Below are positions 4,599 through 62,965 of a stretch of 64,000 nt of DNA, piece by piece (position 1 is the first letter of the stretch; each line of letters starts with the position of its first letter). The notes beneath the pieces are model-generated. The model had not been told where the DNA came from, searched no databases, and worked only from the letters and a program-made list of their open reading frames with translations. This DNA comes from Salipaludibacillus agaradhaerens (GTDB taxonomy: Bacteria; Bacillota; Bacilli; Bacillales; Salisediminibacteriaceae): positions 1,638,869 to 1,702,868 of the forward strand of contig NZ_KV917378.1 of NCBI RefSeq assembly GCF_002019735.1, written 5' to 3'. Both the position numbers and the translations under genes were made by a program.

Positions 4599-4719
4599 AG
4601 ATGATTAAGCCGTATCAAGCATGCCTGTCCAATTCGACCAGTATGCATGGACCTGTTCATAGCAGGGAACAGGCTACAGACACTAAACATCCTTTTCCTC
4701 GAAGGAGCTTAACTAACAC

Positions 4720-4885
4720 GGGTAGGCAGGTCTCCTGACTTACAGAGTAACGGTATACCGCTCCTTCCCATGCAGGTGACTCTACACAGTGGTAATACGC
4801 GGTTACCTTTCTGTTTACAGTGGCGGGACCGCGCTGGATTCACACCAGCTTCCCTATTATCCTAATATTAGGACCTATCCGCAAT
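4720..4885 (-). ncRNA. Cobalamin (adenosylcobalamin) riboswitch
   Basis: Read on the minus strand this is a canonical B12 element: AATAGGGAAGCTGGTGTGAA, then CGGTCCCGCCACTGT (containing the B12 box), and the closing GTCAGGAGACCTGCC. Order and spacing match the cobalamin aptamer class. It is followed about 120 bases later by an intrinsic terminator and then btuF. It should repress import and salvage genes when coenzyme B12 is plentiful. No second B12 box was seen ahead of cobT or cobO. Confidence 0.96.
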
Positions 4886-4996
4886 GTCATTCATTACATG
4901 TCATAATTGGGTAACGAAGCAGAAAAAAATATTTTTTCTGCTGCATACCTTACCTAACTCAGTATAAATGAGTTCGTGCTCGTTGTAAATTTGAAT

Positions 4997-6049: not shown

Positions 6050-6120
6050 GCCATCACCTTGCTCTCCTGTAAGATATGTTTTACCCGTTTAACCAATTTT
6101 TATGAGTCACACTCGAACTC

Positions 6121-6250
6121 TCGGAAAGCACCCATTTGTAACGAAAGGGGCTAAATCTATTTAGGCAGAAGATAACGGATGCTAATGCCCTGACTTACTC
6201 AACTAACAATCAGTGAGAGAAGAACGAAATCCCCTTGATTGTTTTATCAT
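6121..6250 (-). repeat. Dispersed 152-bp element family 1, diverged copy in reverse orientation
   Basis: A decayed copy of the element that is tandem at 32.7-33.56 kb, here on the opposite strand. Recognisable parts are the ATTTAGGC core, GATAACGGATGCTAATG, CTGACTTACTCAACTAACAATCAGTG and GAAGAACGAA. Its last arm is worn (CCCCTTGATTG). It fills most of the gene-free interval between cobQ and cobT (6050-6343), where nothing else is evident. Confidence 0.8.
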
Positions 6251-6343
6251 CCACCTATTAAGTACAATTTATTGCATATTAGTTGTGTTATTGCTTTAAA
6301 AACACCATTATGAAATCGATTTAGAAGTTAAATGTTAAATTCA

Positions 6344-12815: not shown

Positions 12816-12974
12816 TATCATCACTCCTCAATTAAAGCAGTTTTTTCTTCACTCTCTGTAAAACTATGAGTCTAACATCTCGACTATTAAAAGCGGCAAT
12901 ATTGGTTTTAGTTTATCATCATTTCCGAATTTTCTCACTATATGAGCTATTCCGTGATTAATTATCTTGCCTTT

Positions 12975-13121
12975 TCACAGATAAGCCTCCGTAAACCTCC
13001 CGAGTCACAATAGAGAGGACAGCGACAGCAATTTAGGCGTGAGCTAACGGGCTAATGTCCTGATTCACGCAACTAACAATCAGTGGGAGAAGAACGAAAC
13101 GCCTGATTGAAAGTTCGTTTT
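12975..13121 (-). repeat. Dispersed 152-bp element family 1, full-length copy, reverse orientation
   Basis: Begins CACAGATAAGCCTCCGTAAA and ends CTGATTGAAAGTTCGTTTTA, matching the unit borders in the tandem array. All parts are present but diverged: the CCTCCC stem arm, ATAGAGAGGA, the CTGATTC/CAATCAG/CTGATTG triplet and GAAGAACGAAAC. It occupies the gene-free stretch 12825-13205 between the SDR start and the exchanger stop, in which I see nothing else. Confidence 0.88.
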
Positions 13122-13205
13122 ATAAATACTTATTTATTTACTTAGTTGGATGATGACCCGAATACGTTCCCATCAATAAGCAGATGGTGTTACAGTAAAG
13201 CATCA

Positions 13206-14168: not shown

Positions 14169-14183
14169 CTCTGCCCCTCCTTT

Positions 14184-14342
14184 ATCACAGATGAGCGTCC
14201 GTAAACCTCCCTGCTCAAAATAGAGAGCAGAGCTATAGCTATTTAGGCGAGAGATAACGGATGCTAATGTTCTGATTAACGCAACTAACAATCAGTGGGA
14301 AAAGAACAAAAAACGCCACTGATTGAAGGTTCGTTTTATCAT
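14184..14342 (-). repeat. Dispersed 152-bp element family 1, full-length copy, reverse orientation
   Basis: Starts TTTATCACAGATGAGCGTCC and ends TTCGTTTTATCATA. Both borders carry TTTATCA, a possible seven-base target duplication. It sits 16 bases upstream of the exchanger start codon, immediately before the ribosome site, so the exchanger transcript probably reads through or starts in it. It includes the CAATCAGTGGG/CCACTGATTG hairpin. Confidence 0.9.
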
Positions 14343-16936: not shown

Positions 16937-17168
16937 AAAAACACCTCCAAACTAATCGTGGCGTCCTAATTACTTAGCTCTATTAAGCTTATCATAATTA
17001 TTTTCCACTAAGAGGTCTCTCAGATAATCATGTTAGAAAGTCACAGACAAGTGTTCAATTGAAGTAGTAGTTATAAGATCAAAAATTTGTTAGTTGAAGT
17101 CGACTTCATCATGATGTTTTTAAAGATATAACACGATTATTATGCAGTAGATGCGGATGAGAATATGA

Positions 17169-17298
17169 ACCAATCAGTGACGTTTTCGATCTTTTCCCCA
17201 CTGATTGATAGTTAAGTTAATCAGGACATTAGCTCCCACCTAAATAGATGTCACTCTCCCCTCTATTTTAAGGAGTTTTTTACGAACGGCTTATCATG
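17169..17298 (+). repeat. Dispersed 152-bp element family 1, diverged copy
   Basis: Forward orientation. Shows CCAATCAGTGACG/CCCACTGATTG, TCAGGACATTAGC, CTAAATAGATG, CTCTATTTTA and the ACGAACGGCTTATC end. It is the leftmost copy in forward orientation; the three copies to its left are reversed. The flanking bases 16937-17168 hold no gene that I can see. Confidence 0.82.
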
Positions 17299-17304
17299 TG
17301 GTAA

Positions 17305-17440
17305 AAAGCGCCTGACACGTGAGACGACGACTCCCTGAGGATGAAGTGCAATCTGAAGAGCGACGGTTTACTTAGCAAAAGTTAGCTGAAGACAAGTCCT
17401 CGGGGAAAGCGTCCGCCTGAAATGCAGGTCACAGTCATTA
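17305..17440 (-). repeat. Dispersed repeat family 2, copy 1
   Basis: Read on the minus strand it runs TGACTGTGACCTGCATTTCA, CGGACGCTTTCCCCGAGG, CTTGTCTTCAGCTAAC and CCTCAGGGAGTCG. The same order of blocks recurs at 42809-42945 and, internally deleted, at 62895-62965. It lies right next to a family 1 element. Confidence 0.75.
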
Positions 17441-17479
17441 CTCGAATGTTGGTATTTTATTTCAAATAATCACATTCAT

Positions 17480-17638
17480 TTAATTACCTCGTTTATTTTT
17501 CCGTGTCAAATATTCGTATTCAAATCCTGCCTCTTCTACAGGGGAATTTTTAAATTGGCTTAGTCGTCCAGGACGATGTTCACCATTATTTGCATTCTCT
17601 TTAAATTGGTTATCTGGTTTTTTATCTTTTTTGCTCAT
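17480..17638 (-). CDS. Small hydrophilic hypothetical protein, 52 residues
   Basis: Not recognised. Very polar, starting MSKKDKKPDNQFKENANNGE and ending EYLTRKNKRGN, with no membrane segment. The start is ATG 17638 behind AGGAGG at nine bases. The frame continues upstream to 17686 but without a ribosome site. It lies 69 bases downstream of a GH1 gene on the same strand and could be its last operon member. The composition recalls small spore-associated proteins, but no family signature is visible. Confidence 0.6.
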   Translation of the reverse strand: MSKKDKKPDNQFKENANNGEHRPGRLSQFKNSPVEEAGFEYEYLTRKNKRGN

Positions 17639-20208: not shown

Positions 20209-20372
20209 ATATAACGAATCTTCCATCAGTGGGCGTTTTCACTTCTCCCACTAATTGGTAATTGAGTTAGTCAGAAAATGAGTGGCCGTTTACTCCCACC
20301 TGAATACATTTACCTCTCCTCTCTATTTTTCATGCGGGAGTTTTACGGACGGTTATCTGTGATACAACGACT
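20209..20372 (+). repeat. Dispersed 152-bp element family 1, full-length copy, forward
   Basis: From ATATAACGAATCTTCC to GGTTATCTGTGATACAACGA. The main stem reads ACTCCC against GGGAGT where the array copies have CCTCCC against GGGAGG. This is a compensatory C-G to A-T change that keeps pairing. It lies about 90 bases upstream of the ROK kinase start. Confidence 0.9.
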
Positions 20373-22189: not shown

Positions 22190-22379
22190 TCGCTTCACCT
22201 ACTTGTCTTTGATGATAAGCTTTTTAATAATGAGTAACAGTTAATTTCGATAAACTATTATACCATGTTTTGTCGTATCATTTTTTAACATGGAAGATTA
22301 TCCTTGTTGATTTGGCAACTTACTTTCATTCTTTAAAATAAATGTCACAAATTAACGTCCATCACGAACAATAATAAAA

Positions 22380-22502
22380 CGTTCGTACTTCTCCCACTGA
22401 TTGATCGTTGAGTTGATCAGGACATTAACGGCCGTTTGCACCGGCCTAAATACATTTACCTCTCCTCACTATTTTAAATCGGGAGGTTTACGGACAGCTA
22501 TA
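22380..22502 (+). repeat. Dispersed 152-bp element family 1, 5'-truncated copy
   Basis: Starts at the second hairpin arm (CCCACTGATTG) and keeps GATCAGGACATTA, CCGGCCTAAATAC, CTCTCCTCACTATTTTA and GGGAGGTTTACGGAC. The first arm is lost. It lies in the gene-free stretch between the lacI-type start (22189) and the licR-type stop (22648). Confidence 0.85.
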
Positions 22503-22560
22503 GATAGTAAGGTGCCCCATATCATTACCGTTTCTTAGCGTTTTAAAATCCACAAACACT

Positions 22561-32559: not shown

Positions 32560-32667
32560 CTTAATCCACTCCTTTTTCTACACACCCACTACTTTTTAAA
32601 TATAAACAGAATAGTATTTCTTCACTATGTACAACAACCTTTTATAAACAAGCCTTCATACAATAGA

Positions 32668-33560
32668 TTTCCCGCTCTCCTCCCACTGATTGCTCGTGAG
32701 TGAAATCTGGACATGGCCACCGTTACCTCCTGCCTATATAGAGTTAGCTCTCCGCTCTCTATTTTGAACAAGGAGGTTTACGGACGGTTATCTGTGATAT
32801 AACGAACCTTCAATCAGTGGGGGGTTTGTTCTTCTCCCACTGATTGGTAGTTGAGTCAATCAGGACATTACCGGCCGTTACCTCCCCCTAAATAGATGGC
32901 TCTCTCCTCTTTATTTTGAGCAGGGAGGTTTACGGACGGTTATCTGTGATATAACGAACCTTCAATCAGTGGGGGTTTTGTTCTTTTCCCACTGATTGGT
33001 AGTTGAGTGAATCAGGACATTACCGGCCGTTACCTCCCCCTAAATAGATGGCTCTCTCCTCTCTATTTTGAGCAGGGAGGTTTACGGACGGTTATCTGTG
33101 ATATAACGAACCTTCAATCAGTGGGGGGTTTGTTCTTCTCCCACTGATTGGTAGTTGAGTCAATCAGGACATTACCGGCCGTTACCTCCCCCTAAATAGA
33201 TGGCTCTCTCCTCTCTATTTTGAGCAGGGAGGTTTACGGACGGTTATCTGTGATATAACGAACCTTCAATCAGTGGGGGGTTTGTTCTTCTCCCACTGAT
33301 TGGTAGTTGAGTCAATCAGGACATTACCGGCCGTTACCTCCCCCTAAATAGATGGCTCTCTCCTCTCTATTTTGAGCAGGGAGGTTTACGGACGGTTATC
33401 TGTGATATAACGAACCTTCAATCAGTGGGGGTTTTGTTCTTCTCCCACTGATTGGTAGTTGAGTCAATCAGGACATTACCGGCCGTTACCTCCCCCCCTA
33501 AATAGATGGCTCTCTCCTCTCTATTTTGAGCAGGGAGGTTTACGGACGGTTATCTGTGAT
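32668..33560 (+). repeat. Six-copy tandem array of the 152-bp element (family 1)
   Basis: The 3' landmark CGGACGGTTATCTGTGAT starts at 32781, 32933, 33085, 33237, 33389 and 33543. The period is 152, 152, 152, 152 and 154 bases; the last unit has two extra C. The first copy is clearly diverged; the other five are nearly identical. Each unit holds hairpin 1 (CAATCAGTGGG/CCCACTGATTG), a third CAATCAG arm, and a long stem (CCGTTACCTCCC against GGGAGGTTTACGG) around AAATAGA/TCTATTT. There is no coding frame. It fills the interval between the divergent MMPL and TetR genes. Confidence 0.97.
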
Positions 33561-33579
33561 AAATGTTATAATAGATAAA

Positions 33580-34237: not shown

Positions 34238-34377
34238 TGTTAAACGAGTTAATGTACTATGTAGCTCGAAAGGTGTGTATGACAGAAACTGTCATGGCGC
34301 TTCTATATATTCGATCGATGAAGAGGCACCTCTTATTATATGAAATTTTTATTCCTATGAACCAATTTCATAAAGCT

Positions 34378-34405
34378 AAGCTTCAATCAGTGGTGTTTTA
34401 CTGCC
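34378..34405 (+). repeat. Remnant of family 1 element
   Basis: CTTCAATCAGTGGTGTTTTA followed by CTGCCCCTTAAG is the first arm of the element and little else. The rest of 34238-34500 shows no gene. Confidence 0.5.
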
Positions 34406-34521
34406 CCTTAAGAATGGGATAAACGAATATTTGCTATAAAATAATTAGTCTTGTTTTAGCTTTTTCGTGTTGACATTCTTTCCCTATCTGAAATATTTTA
34501 AGGTAACTTGCTATCAGGTAG

Positions 34522-42683: not shown

Positions 42684-42795
42684 AATATAACGAACCTTCA
42701 ATCAGTGAGGGTTTTTGTTCTTCTCACACTGATTGGTAGTTGAGTCAATCCCACTTAAATAGATGTGGCTCTCCTCTCTATTTTGAGCGAGGTCA
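42684..42795 (+). repeat. Dispersed 152-bp element family 1, internally deleted copy
   Basis: AATATAACGAACCTTCAATC to CTCTATTTTGAGCGAGG. The segment between TTGAGTCAATC and CACTTAAATAGATG, about 25 bases in the array copies, is missing. It lies directly upstream of queC. Confidence 0.88.
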
Positions 42796-42808
42796 AAAAC
42801 CGAATAAT

Positions 42809-42945
42809 GAATGTGACCTTCACTTCAGATGCCGCTTTATCAAGGGCATGTCTTCAGCTACCTTTTTCTCGGTAAATCCGCGCAAAAGTGGACCTTCAGA
42901 CTGCGATTTAACCTCTAGGAGTCGCTGTCTTACGTTTCAGCCACT
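42809..42945 (+). repeat. Dispersed repeat family 2, copy 2
   Basis: ATGTGACCTTCACTTCAGAT, CCGCTTTATCAAGGGCATG, TCTTCAGCTACC, GACCTTCAGACTGCG and TCTAGGAGTCGCTGTC follow the same order as the copy at 17305-17440 (other strand). As there, it lies beside a family 1 element. Confidence 0.72.
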
Positions 42946-43165
42946 TTTTATTATCCACATATTAAAATCCTATGAAAAACAAAAAAACCACGCCCCCTAA
43001 GGACATGGCAATACATCATTTTCCTTAGTTTTTTATAGAGGGTTGAGCTAGAACCTCTTTCCAGCATAAGCTGGTATTCATTTATCACTCGTGAGACACT
43101 TATGTATTATATCATAGATCCCATTAACGCCACTACATATGTTCATTAATCTAAAACAGCGATAA

Positions 43166-45116: not shown

Positions 45117-45384
45117 ACGTGGCACTGATGCCCTCTTTTCACGACACTCACTTCGCTTTTCACCTCTGAGTGGCACTCGTTTTCCCTTTTTTGCGACACT
45201 CACGACGCTTCTCACCTCTGAGTGGCGCTCTTCCTCTCTTTTCACGACACTCACAACGCTCCACACACCTGAGTGGCGCTCTTCCTCCTTTTTCACGCCA
45301 CTCACGACGCTCCACACGCCTGAGTGGCGCTCTTCCTCTCTTTTCACGACACTCACTACACTTCCACCTTCTGAGTGGCGCTGG
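45117..45384. repeat. 51-bp tandem repeat array, six units
   Basis: GAGTGGCGCTC-type landmarks start at about 45117, 45168, 45220, 45271, 45322 and 45373 (period 51, once 52). Each unit has a GAGTGGCG arm, a pyrimidine stretch (CTCTTCCTCTCTTTT), a CGACACTC or CGCCACTC arm, and ACGACGCTCCACACGCCT. One unit (45271) has an exact GAGTGGCG/CGCCACTC pair. Because 51 is a multiple of three, frames stay open on both strands, giving spurious Arg/Glu-rich readings. It lies in the gene-free span 44951-45563. Confidence 0.9.
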
Positions 45385-45563
45385 TTTCCACAAATCCAGA
45401 CGCTTTGCGAAGATCCCCTCTTACGCCCTTTTTAAAATGACTCTGTGATATAGACTATTTAGCACAGTTGGCTTGTTCGTGTTGGAAAAACAATTTTGAA
45501 CTCTAACTGTAACAAATTAAAGCTTTATCCTTTGTCTTTTTTTGTTCTCGCTCCCTATTCAAA

Positions 45564-51245: not shown

Positions 51246-51506
51246 TCTATCCCTCCTGTAAAGTAGTGATCTTCTACTATCAGTCTTCCTCTCCTGTCAT
51301 GCTTTATAAACCTTATTTTCACAAAGAGAACCCATTTCATCATACAAAATTCATCTAAAAAGAACGCCCCTTTCAATGATCTGCCGTTACAAACAGACGT
51401 TTTCCAAAAGCTCGACTTTTCCTAGAAGCCATTAAAAAAAACGACGACATGTGATAAAGACTCTTTCTCATTGTCCGCTTGTTCATATTGAAAATGATTT
51501 TAACGA

Positions 51507-51576
51507 TCTTTCTCCTAATATAGAGTTAGCTCTCCTCTCTATTTTGAAGCAGGAGTTTTATGGACGAATATCTGTG
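51507..51576 (+). repeat. Family 1 element, 3' half only
   Basis: CTCCTAATATAGAGTTAGCT to AGGAGTTTTATGGACGAATATC. Only the long-stem part remains. Its sequence is nearest to the diverged first copy of the array (TATAGAGTTAGCTCTCC). It lies in the gene-free stretch 51246-51606. Confidence 0.78.
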
Positions 51577-51606
51577 AAAAAAATTCCTATAGACATGTGG
51601 CATCGT

Positions 51607-56390: not shown

Positions 56391-56482
56391 TAATATAACG
56401 AATCTTCAATCAGTGGGAGTTTTCGTTCTTCTCCCTCTGATTGATCGTTGAGTGAACCAAGACATTAGCAGCCGTTAACTGA
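56391..56482 (+). repeat. Family 1 element, 5' half only
   Basis: ATATAACGAATCTTCAATCA through CTCCCTCTGATTGATCG to GACATTAGCAGCCGTTAAC. The long-stem half is missing. It begins within a few bases of the stop codon of anchored protein 2. Confidence 0.85.
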
Positions 56483-56527
56483 CGCTCAACACACGTTAAA
56501 CAGACACTAGGACATAACCTTGTGAAG

Positions 56528-60355: not shown

Positions 60356-60429
60356 CTCATCGTGGTTTTAGTTAGGCATAATTTAATAAGCAAACGAAAA
60401 ATACCGACGGATCGTACTTCCCGTCGGCA

Positions 60430-60582
60430 TAAAACAAACTTTCAATCAATGAGCATTTTCACCTTCTTGCACTGATTGGTCGTTGCGTGAATTAGAACAT
60501 GTGCGTCCGTTATCTCCCGACTAAATAGCGTTAGTTCTCCTCTCTATTTTGAGGCGGGAATTTTACGGACGCTTATCTGCCA
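60430..60582 (+). repeat. Dispersed 152-bp element family 1, full-length diverged copy
   Basis: ATAAAACAAACTTTCAATCA to TTACGGACGCTTATCTGCC. Hairpin 1 reads CAATCAATGAGC/GCACTGATTG. The long stem is CTCCCG against CGGGAA, and AAATAG/CTATTT is intact. It fills the space before the chemoreceptor stop codon. Confidence 0.9.
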
Positions 60583-60612
60583 AAAATCATCTGTCAAACT
60601 TACTTACATTTT

Positions 60613-62842: not shown

Positions 62843-62894
62843 GCCTGCTTAAGAATCAATTTCATAACGTAAAATAAGATGTCAACATTTGCAT

Positions 62895-62965
62895 AATGAC
62901 TGTGATCTTCACTTCAGACGGACGCTTTATCCTCAGGGAGTCGCCGTCTCTTTTACTTCAGCTTT
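62895..62965 (+). repeat. Dispersed repeat family 2, internally deleted copy
   Basis: ATAATGACTGTGATCTTCAC, TTCAGACGGACGCTTTATCC and TCAGGGAGTCGCCGTCTC match both ends of the copy at 17305-17440, with the middle missing. The rest of 62976-63104 is featureless. Confidence 0.72.

What the first reader, a model, noticed from the sequence alone, without database searches (positions are those of the whole stretch)
32668..33560. A 152-bp structured element amplified in tandem and scattered about 17 times over 64 kb
Seen directly: six head-to-tail units (period 152, 152, 152, 152, 154) plus dispersed copies at 6121, 12975, 14184, 17169, 20209, 22380, 34378, 42684, 51507, 56391 and 60430. None overlaps a plausible coding region, and truncated copies exist for both halves. 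Five array units are almost identical while the dispersed ones are diverged, so the array was amplified or homogenised recently. There is no ORF, so the element would be mobilised in trans if it is a MITE, or kept as a structured RNA/DNA element. The copy density (one per 4 kb) is high for a bacterial repeat. I do not recognise it as a named family.
Basis: seen in the sequence. Interest (0 to 1): 0.8.

Follow-up and report, generated by a model that had tools for sequence, protein, structure and literature searches.

The report
Fork-oriented TTTAT jumping repeat of Bacilli
A folded, gene-free piece of DNA of about 150 bases sits in at least 150 places in this bacterium, typically between TTTAT letters and mostly facing the way DNA is copied; relatives of it occur in many other Bacillus-like genera, and the enzyme that moves it is unknown.

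Summary
Each consists of two stem-loops between TTTAT repeats. Sister genome G007 carries two such elements where the window and G006 have a single clean ATAAA, so insertion duplicates 5 bp. The array has 6 units here, 5 in G007, 1 in G006, with concerted evolution.

Two further results: (1) orientation follows the replication fork (103 of 123 clusters with the origin set by dnaA), even where both neighbouring genes oppose it (10 of 11). (2) The fold is kept across genera by compensatory change (35 of 41 pairs); a covariance model finds relatives in 38 of 398 Bacilli genomes (22 of 146 genera). No Rfam match.

G000 and G007, with at least 150 copies each, have no detectable Y1 transposase or reverse transcriptase, so the machinery is unidentified.

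The nearest known kind is bcr1-bcr3 of the Bacillus cereus group (similar size, TTTAT, MITE-like). No bcr1 sequence was available; sequence membership is untested. I read it as a non-autonomous element inserting as a single strand into the lagging-strand template at TTTAT.

The parts
32643..32800 (-). array unit 1, most diverged (69-70% identical to units 2-6); its outer end reads TTTAT
32797..32952 (-). array unit 2
32949..33104 (-). array unit 3
33101..33256 (-). array unit 4
33253..33408 (-). array unit 5 (profile hit 33254-33407)
33405..33562 (-). array unit 6; the 5' TTTAT of the active strand is ATAAA on the + strand at 33559-33563
6104..6255 (+). dispersed copy, decayed
12972..13123 (+). 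dispersed copy; G007 has a long variant at the likely same site
14182..14339 (+). full-length dispersed copy; absent from G006, long variant at the same site in G007
17160..17304 (-). dispersed copy, part of a 384-bp stretch absent from G007
20209..20365 (-). full-length dispersed copy
22250..22254 (.). empty target ATAAA: G007 carries a family-A plus a family-B element exactly here; G006 is empty too
22346..22510 (-). dispersed copy, decayed
34370..34423 (-). deletion remnant of a family-B element, ATAAA at both ends
42685..42798 (-). dispersed copy, internally deleted
51436..51580 (-). dispersed copy, decayed
56393..56498 (-). dispersed copy, truncated; G006 has a family-B element at the ATAAA of this site
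60429..60585 (-). full-length dispersed copy, shared with G007

Best explanation
It is a non-autonomous mobile element of a wide superfamily in Bacilli. Read 5' to 3' on its active strand (the minus strand at the array): TTTAT, a long stem-loop SL1, a linker (TTCAACTAAC-like outside this genus), a second stem-loop SL2, about 10 nt, TTTAT. SHOWN: at one letter-perfect site, insertion turned one ATAAA (TTTAT) into one on each side of each element; elements can lie head to tail sharing that motif; the active strand tends to run with the replication fork whatever the direction of the neighbouring genes; the fold is kept between genera by compensatory change. INFERRED: the folded single strand, freed on the lagging-strand template, is the substrate of a recombinase supplied in trans, which joins it to TTTAT in another lagging-strand template. 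Once a pair exists, unequal recombination or slippage amplifies and homogenises arrays such as this one. NOT IDENTIFIED: the recombinase. No Y1 (IS200/IS605-type) transposase and no RVT_1 reverse transcriptase was detected in G000 or G007.
For: Clean empty site for an A+B tandem pair in two genomes. The 14182 copy is missing from G006 with 5-6 bp between the flanks. Base conservation falls to near background right outside TTTAT on both sides: an exact TTTAT at the 5' and 3' end in 84 and 82 of 130 G000 copies, 25 and 27 of 30 in genus g5, 20 and 25 of 26 in other genera; both ends in 52 of 80 cross-genus matches, where TTTAT has a frequency of 0.0032 per base. Fork: origin placed by dnaA; 103 of 123 G000 clusters co-directional, 10 of 11 where both neighbours run against the fork, 54 of 67 where both run with it, 13 of 14 between convergent and 20 of 23 between divergent genes; Fisher p about 8e-6 against 'follows the genes'. 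With two fitted breaks 133 of 150 copies, 113 of 130 clusters. G007 34 of 39 and G006 30 of 45 clusters. Covariation: 25 of 41 pairs with double changes, 121 cells against 32 shuffled and at most 36 slid; across genera 35 of 41, 299 cells against 83 shuffled and at most 53 slid. Patchy: 3 of 8 genomes of the genus (own included) with at least 150 copies, 0 in the other 5; 5 of 35 in the family. Array 6 / 5 / 1 units in G000 / G007 / G006.
Against: No enzyme is identified: PF01797 and PF00078 find nothing in G000 and G007, and no longer, autonomous version showed up in 2.04 Mb of fetched, partly redundant sequence with about 640 half-elements of each kind. Fork bias is weaker in G006 (30 of 45) and in G024/G026 (58 of 74, 55 of 73, with breaks fitted to the data and no origin located); 13 of 67 clusters beside fork-directed genes run against the fork. 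Only one empty site is letter-perfect: at the 14182 site G006 reads TCGTAT, not TTTAT, and the other pairs printed were not clean. The five inner junctions of this array read TATAT. A3 and A7 were fitted to the model's structure, which favours its pairs; 44 of the 74 sources of A7 were picked by a pattern in linker and SL2, which biases conservation there. The active-strand argument from G-T pairs is modest: in pairs C>T 0.103 against G>A 0.072, unpaired 0.119 against 0.114.
Confidence: 0.55

Rival explanations
1. It is the bcr1-bcr3 type of repeat, known from the Bacillus cereus group, in other Bacilli: the same kind, moving by the site-specific-recombination-like mechanism proposed for TTTAT-bearing bcr elements. 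This rivals the novelty more than the mechanism.
For: [quoted passage not shown] bcr elements are 100-400 bp and bcr1 averages 39 copies per strain. PMC2267715 (passages) gives bcr1 as a structured family of 167 bp (147 in the literature). Size, target motif and fold agree.
Against: bcr1 is described as specific to the B. cereus group (title seen in reference lists). No bcr1 sequence could be read here.
Confidence: 0.5
2. An IS200/IS605-like Y1 transposase moves it in trans, as in REP/RAYT systems: stem-loops at both ends, TTTAT as cleavage site, 'TAA' guides at the foot of each stem, lagging-strand coupling.
For: The anatomy fits: NTAA just before SL1, CTAAC just before SL2, TTTAT about 10 nt after SL2; fork orientation as recalled for IS608. 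That IS606 uses TTTAT is recalled and comes from no call.
Against: No PF01797 match at E<=0.001 in G000 or G007, both with at least 150 copies; 23 of 30 genomes without the element have one. The ends of the G006 IS200-like element differ.
Confidence: 0.2
3. A SINE-like element that moves through an RNA copy made by a reverse transcriptase.
For: Strand-specific fold, conserved 3' stem-loop, polarity; an RNA entering the lagging-strand template would give the same orientation (inference).
Against: No RVT_1 match in G000 or G007 and only one broken match (7 stops) in G006; 18 of 30 genomes without the element have one. Carriers G024 and G026 do have matches.
Confidence: 0.08
4. A host-maintained regulatory RNA, terminator or replication-associated site rather than a mobile element.
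For: Compensatory change across genera; 0 of 139 copies inside a called ORF; orientation with the fork; paired sites change at 0.55-0.87 of the unpaired rate within G000.
Against: No match in 5 of 8 genomes of the genus and 30 of 35 of the family; several sites differ between G000 and G007, 89-93% identical in the main aligned stretches; neighbours in all arrangements.
Confidence: 0.07

Closest known systems
bcr1, bcr2, bcr3 (group A repeats of the Bacillus cereus group)
   Same: about 150 bp for bcr1, intergenic, folded, many dispersed copies, TTTAT motif, called MITE-like and suggested mobile by a site-specific recombination-like process (PMC6542083, PMC3446304, PMC2267715: passages read)
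   Different: reported as specific to the B. cereus group; here a relative is found in 22 of 146 Bacilli genera sampled; fork orientation, an exact empty site and cross-genus covariation were not in the passages I read; sequence relation untested
IS200/IS605-type single-strand elements and REP/RAYT systems
   Same: subterminal stem-loops, no terminal inverted repeats, short fixed target, orientation with replication (family features recalled)
   Different: no Y1 transposase detectable in two of the richest genomes; TTTAT on both sides; no autonomous partner found
MITEs such as ERIC, RUP, nemis
   Same: short, non-coding, folded, mobile in trans
   Different: no terminal inverted repeats seen; two separate stem-loops; oriented with the fork. 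PMC3733652 (passage) counts bcr1 among MITEs
Integron cassettes / attC sites
   Same: folded single strand as recombination substrate (recalled); head-to-tail arrays
   Different: target is a 5-bp TTTAT dispersed between genes; an integrase was not sought

Membership tests
bcr1-bcr3 (B. cereus group repeats) | length about 150 bp, no ORF, intergenic | tested here: met
bcr1-bcr3 (B. cereus group repeats) | TTTAT motif at the ends | tested here: met
   not in every copy, and TATAT at the inner junctions of this array
bcr1-bcr3 (B. cereus group repeats) | sequence similarity to the bcr1-bcr3 consensus | not testable with these tools
   paper not held, no consensus in the passages read; indirect: no B. 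cereus group plasmid among matches
bcr1-bcr3 (B. cereus group repeats) | restricted to the B. cereus group | tested here: not met
   relatives of this element in many other genera; whether bcr1 itself occurs outside the group was not tested
IS200/IS605 or REP/RAYT derivative | Y1 transposase in the genome | tested here: not met
   0 matches to PF01797 in G000 and G007; G006, G024 and G026 do have matches
IS200/IS605 or REP/RAYT derivative | stem-loops near both ends, no terminal inverted repeats | tested here: met
   absence of inverted repeats judged by eye
IS200/IS605 or REP/RAYT derivative | insertion next to a short fixed target, oriented with replication | tested here: met
   bias weaker in G006, G024, G026
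MITE | terminal inverted repeats of 15-30 bp (wording of PMC3733652, passage) | tested here: not met
   ends compared by eye
any Rfam 15 family | match to a covariance model | tested here: not met
   nothing at a gathering score within an element
RNA-mediated retroelement | reverse transcriptase in the genome | tested here: not met
   0 matches to PF00078 in G000 and G007; G024 and G026 have matches

The most novel reading that the evidence does not exclude
A large, so far unrecognised class of replication-coupled single-strand insertion elements, spread over much of the Bacilli, moved at TTTAT by a recombinase that is neither a Y1 transposase nor a reverse transcriptase and may be a chromosomal housekeeping enzyme; bcr1 of the B. 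cereus group would be one branch of it.
Probability: 0.35. Interest if true: 0.85.

Novelty: new variant of a known kind. Interest (0 to 1): 0.62.

Why it matters
A repeat type that looks like one reported as peculiar to the B. cereus group turns out to have relatives across Bacilli. The work gives a covariance model to find it and makes its mobility testable: an exact TTTAT duplication, a relation to the replication fork that does not depend on gene direction, and two genomes rich in copies (one of them, G007, with an insertion pair newer than its split from G000) in which no Y1 transposase or reverse transcriptase was detected. Finding the enzyme would answer how gene-free elements with at least 150 copies move.

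Tried and rejected
Rejected: known RNA family (the matches and the two, in L187 and L075, are below the gathering scores). Rejected: carriage by phages or plasmids as a main route (no phage match; plasmid matches in 0 records with a window-genome copy, and in 3 records at E 1e-5 or 5 at E 1 with a copy of genome G293; 0 viral contigs with one motif, and 4 with another, not examined further). Not supported as mobiliser: Y1 transposase and reverse transcriptase in G000/G007; the G006 IS200-like element, whose ends differ. Led nowhere: RNAalifold on the plus-strand alignment gave 0 pairs, and 16 pairs without double changes on the minus strand; covariation appeared only when several families were aligned to the model. 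An autonomous long form was looked for among half-elements in 2.04 Mb of fetched, partly overlapping sequence: 13 halves with a distant partner, not followed one by one. Six literature searches by name, motif and sequence letters: no listing that I saw showed this element outside the B. cereus group; the library holds open papers only. Of the 44 named loci that I gave to model R2, 42 gave a match; the two that did not, L246 (Oceanobacillus luteolus) and L299 (Priestia megaterium), show only linker and SL2-like letters, so Priestia is not claimed. Rows dropped: hits under 100 bp and duplicates (146 rows to 139 copies), then 8 of 123 clusters at stretch edges for the neighbour counts; I transcribed hits from cut-off listings (G007 68 and G006 51 of at least 150 each, G024 77 of 80, G026 73 of 76), 3 of the 29 loci (L227, L232, L233).

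Full report
OBSERVATION. The array and the dispersed copies are real. Tandem Repeats Finder reports period 152 with 5.8 copies at 32676-33561. The core motif is far above chance (24 against 0.77 expected). In the whole genome there are 73 BLAST matches and 150 model matches, the cap of the search.

ANATOMY. Aligned copies share sharp edges. On the strand I call active (minus at the array) the element reads TTTAT, stem-loop SL1, a linker, stem-loop SL2, about ten bases, TTTAT; the part between the two motifs is about 147-149 bp. Base conservation falls to near background right outside TTTAT on both sides in three sets of copies; an exact TTTAT is present at the 5' and 3' end in 84 and 82 of 130 copies in G000, 25 and 27 of 30 in genus g5 and 20 and 25 of 26 in other genera. 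Tandem units share one 5-bp junction, which is why the period is 152; in this array the five junctions read TATAT and the outer ends TTTAT.

INSERTION SITE. In G007, a same-genus genome 89-93% identical in the main aligned stretches, two elements of different families (A, as in the array, and B, abundant in the G006 stretch) lie head to tail. The window (22250-22254) and G006 have one ATAAA there, with the same adjoining letters. This is a 5-bp duplication of TTTAT/ATAAA. The copy at 14182 is missing from G006, leaving 5-6 bp, which read TCGTAT there. Other candidate pairs were not clean enough to read.

ARRAY. The array lies between an MMPL gene on the minus strand and a TetR-family gene on the plus strand (Pfam). 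The orthologous place holds 6 units here, 5 in G007 and 1 in G006. Units 2-6 are 97-100% alike in this genome and units 2-5 98-100% in G007, but 95-97% between them; the first G007 unit looks half old, half new type. I read this as concerted evolution by recombination or slippage.

FORK ORIENTATION. dnaA places the origin near 2.875 Mb in G000. With that origin, 103 of 123 clusters have the active strand running with the fork; with two breaks fitted to the data, 133 of 150 copies or 113 of 130 clusters. Neighbouring genes do not explain it: where both neighbours run with the fork the element does so in 54 of 67 clusters, where both run against it still in 10 of 11, between convergent genes in 13 of 14 and between divergent ones in 20 of 23 (8 of 123 at stretch edges left out; Fisher p about 8e-6 against following the genes; ORFs called mechanically). 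G007 shows 34 of 39 and G006 30 of 45 clusters; G024 and G026, with no origin located, 58 of 74 and 55 of 73 for fitted breaks. The bias is strong in two genomes and weaker in three.

FOLD. A unit of the array folds better than all 200 shuffles on either strand, more so on the minus strand (z -5.7; plus -4.0). Across families the stems are rewritten by compensatory change: 25 of 41 pairs with changes on both sides and, over 81 sequences, 35 of 41, with 299 doubly changed cells against 83 shuffled and at most 53 in slid controls. The alignments were fitted to the model, so these numbers lean towards it, and 44 of the 74 sources behind the second were chosen by a pattern in linker and SL2, so conservation there is partly built in. 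Within G000, transitions at paired sites run at 0.55-0.87 of the unpaired rate, with a modest preference for changes that keep G-T pairs on the active strand. My reading is that single copies decay with at most partial constraint while the mobile source must fold.

DISTRIBUTION. In the genus 3 of 8 genomes (own included) have at least 150 copies and 5 have none; in the family 5 of 35. A broader model finds relatives in 38 of 398 Bacilli genomes (own included), 22 of 146 genera, with at most seven candidates scored per genome and strict filters, so this is a lower bound. Two, from Oceanobacillus luteolus and Priestia megaterium, do not. No Rfam family matches at its gathering score.

MACHINERY. 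No Y1 transposase and no RVT_1 reverse transcriptase is detectable in G000 or G007, though G007 has an insertion pair newer than its split from G000. The carriers G006, G024 and G026 do have Y1 matches, and 23 of 30 non-carriers do too, so presence does not track the element. G006 IS200-like elements have other ends. No autonomous form was recognised among about 640 half-elements of each kind in 2.04 Mb of partly redundant sequence.

COMPARISON. The nearest known kind is group A of the bcr repeats. [quoted passage not shown] PMC3446304 (passages) calls bcr1-bcr3 MITE-like and finds 84 of 165 and 62 of 155 bcr copies in transcripts of two strains; PMC2267715 (passages) lists bcr1 as a folded family. 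The original 2004 paper is not held; I know of it from reference lists and recall. So 'works like bcr1' is well supported, and 'is bcr1' is untested in sequence. IS200/IS605 elements are the best mechanistic analogy (lagging-strand coupling and the TTTAT target of IS606 are recalled), but the defining transposase was not found in G000 and G007.

VERDICT. A real, mobile, widespread element; the kind is partly known from the B. cereus group; range, fork orientation, exact target duplication and covariation are what this work adds. The mechanism is inferred and its enzyme unknown.

Noticed in passing
window 17301-17482, 42794-42950 and 62854-62928; L135:6031-6215, L163:1637-1812, L189:1369-1524: A different repeat family of about 160-185 bp (GTCCTCGGGGAAAGCGTCCGCC type) has three matches in the window, one of them partial; at 17096-17480 it lies beside an element copy in a 384-bp stretch missing from G007.
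   Followed up: partly
G007 stretch (L136, L138), G000 L202:1509-1724: Long variants of the element carry about 60 extra bases (GGGCCAACAGGATGTTGG...) in place of the linker. At the site of the window copy 14182, G007 has the long and G000 the short form with otherwise matching SL1, which suggests gene conversion or module exchange between copies.
   Followed up: partly
L185 and L187 (G006 IS200-like elements): Two of four near-identical IS200-like insertions in G006 lie right beside family-B elements.
   Followed up: no
window 45133-45386: A 51-bp tandem repeat, 4.9 copies, 83% matches, overlapping ORFs on both strands.
   Followed up: no
window 4708-4893 and 43019-43063, minus strand: A cobalamin riboswitch and a PreQ1 riboswitch by Rfam.
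   Followed up: no
G006 stretch, 78179-78321 against window 56393: G006 has a family-B element at the ATAAA in front of a family-A-like start where the window and G007 carry a family-A element alone: target re-use at the same place.
   Followed up: partly
plasmid CP079755.1 (Klebsiella grimontii), 221561-221624: A 3'-half match of the element (80.9% over 44% of the query) in a plasmid recorded for a Gram-negative host; could be transfer, a mixed assembly or chance.
   Followed up: no
L299 (Priestia megaterium), near 2801; L246 (Oceanobacillus luteolus), near 2882: Linker plus SL2-like letters without a recognisable full element; possibly another subfamily.
   Followed up: no
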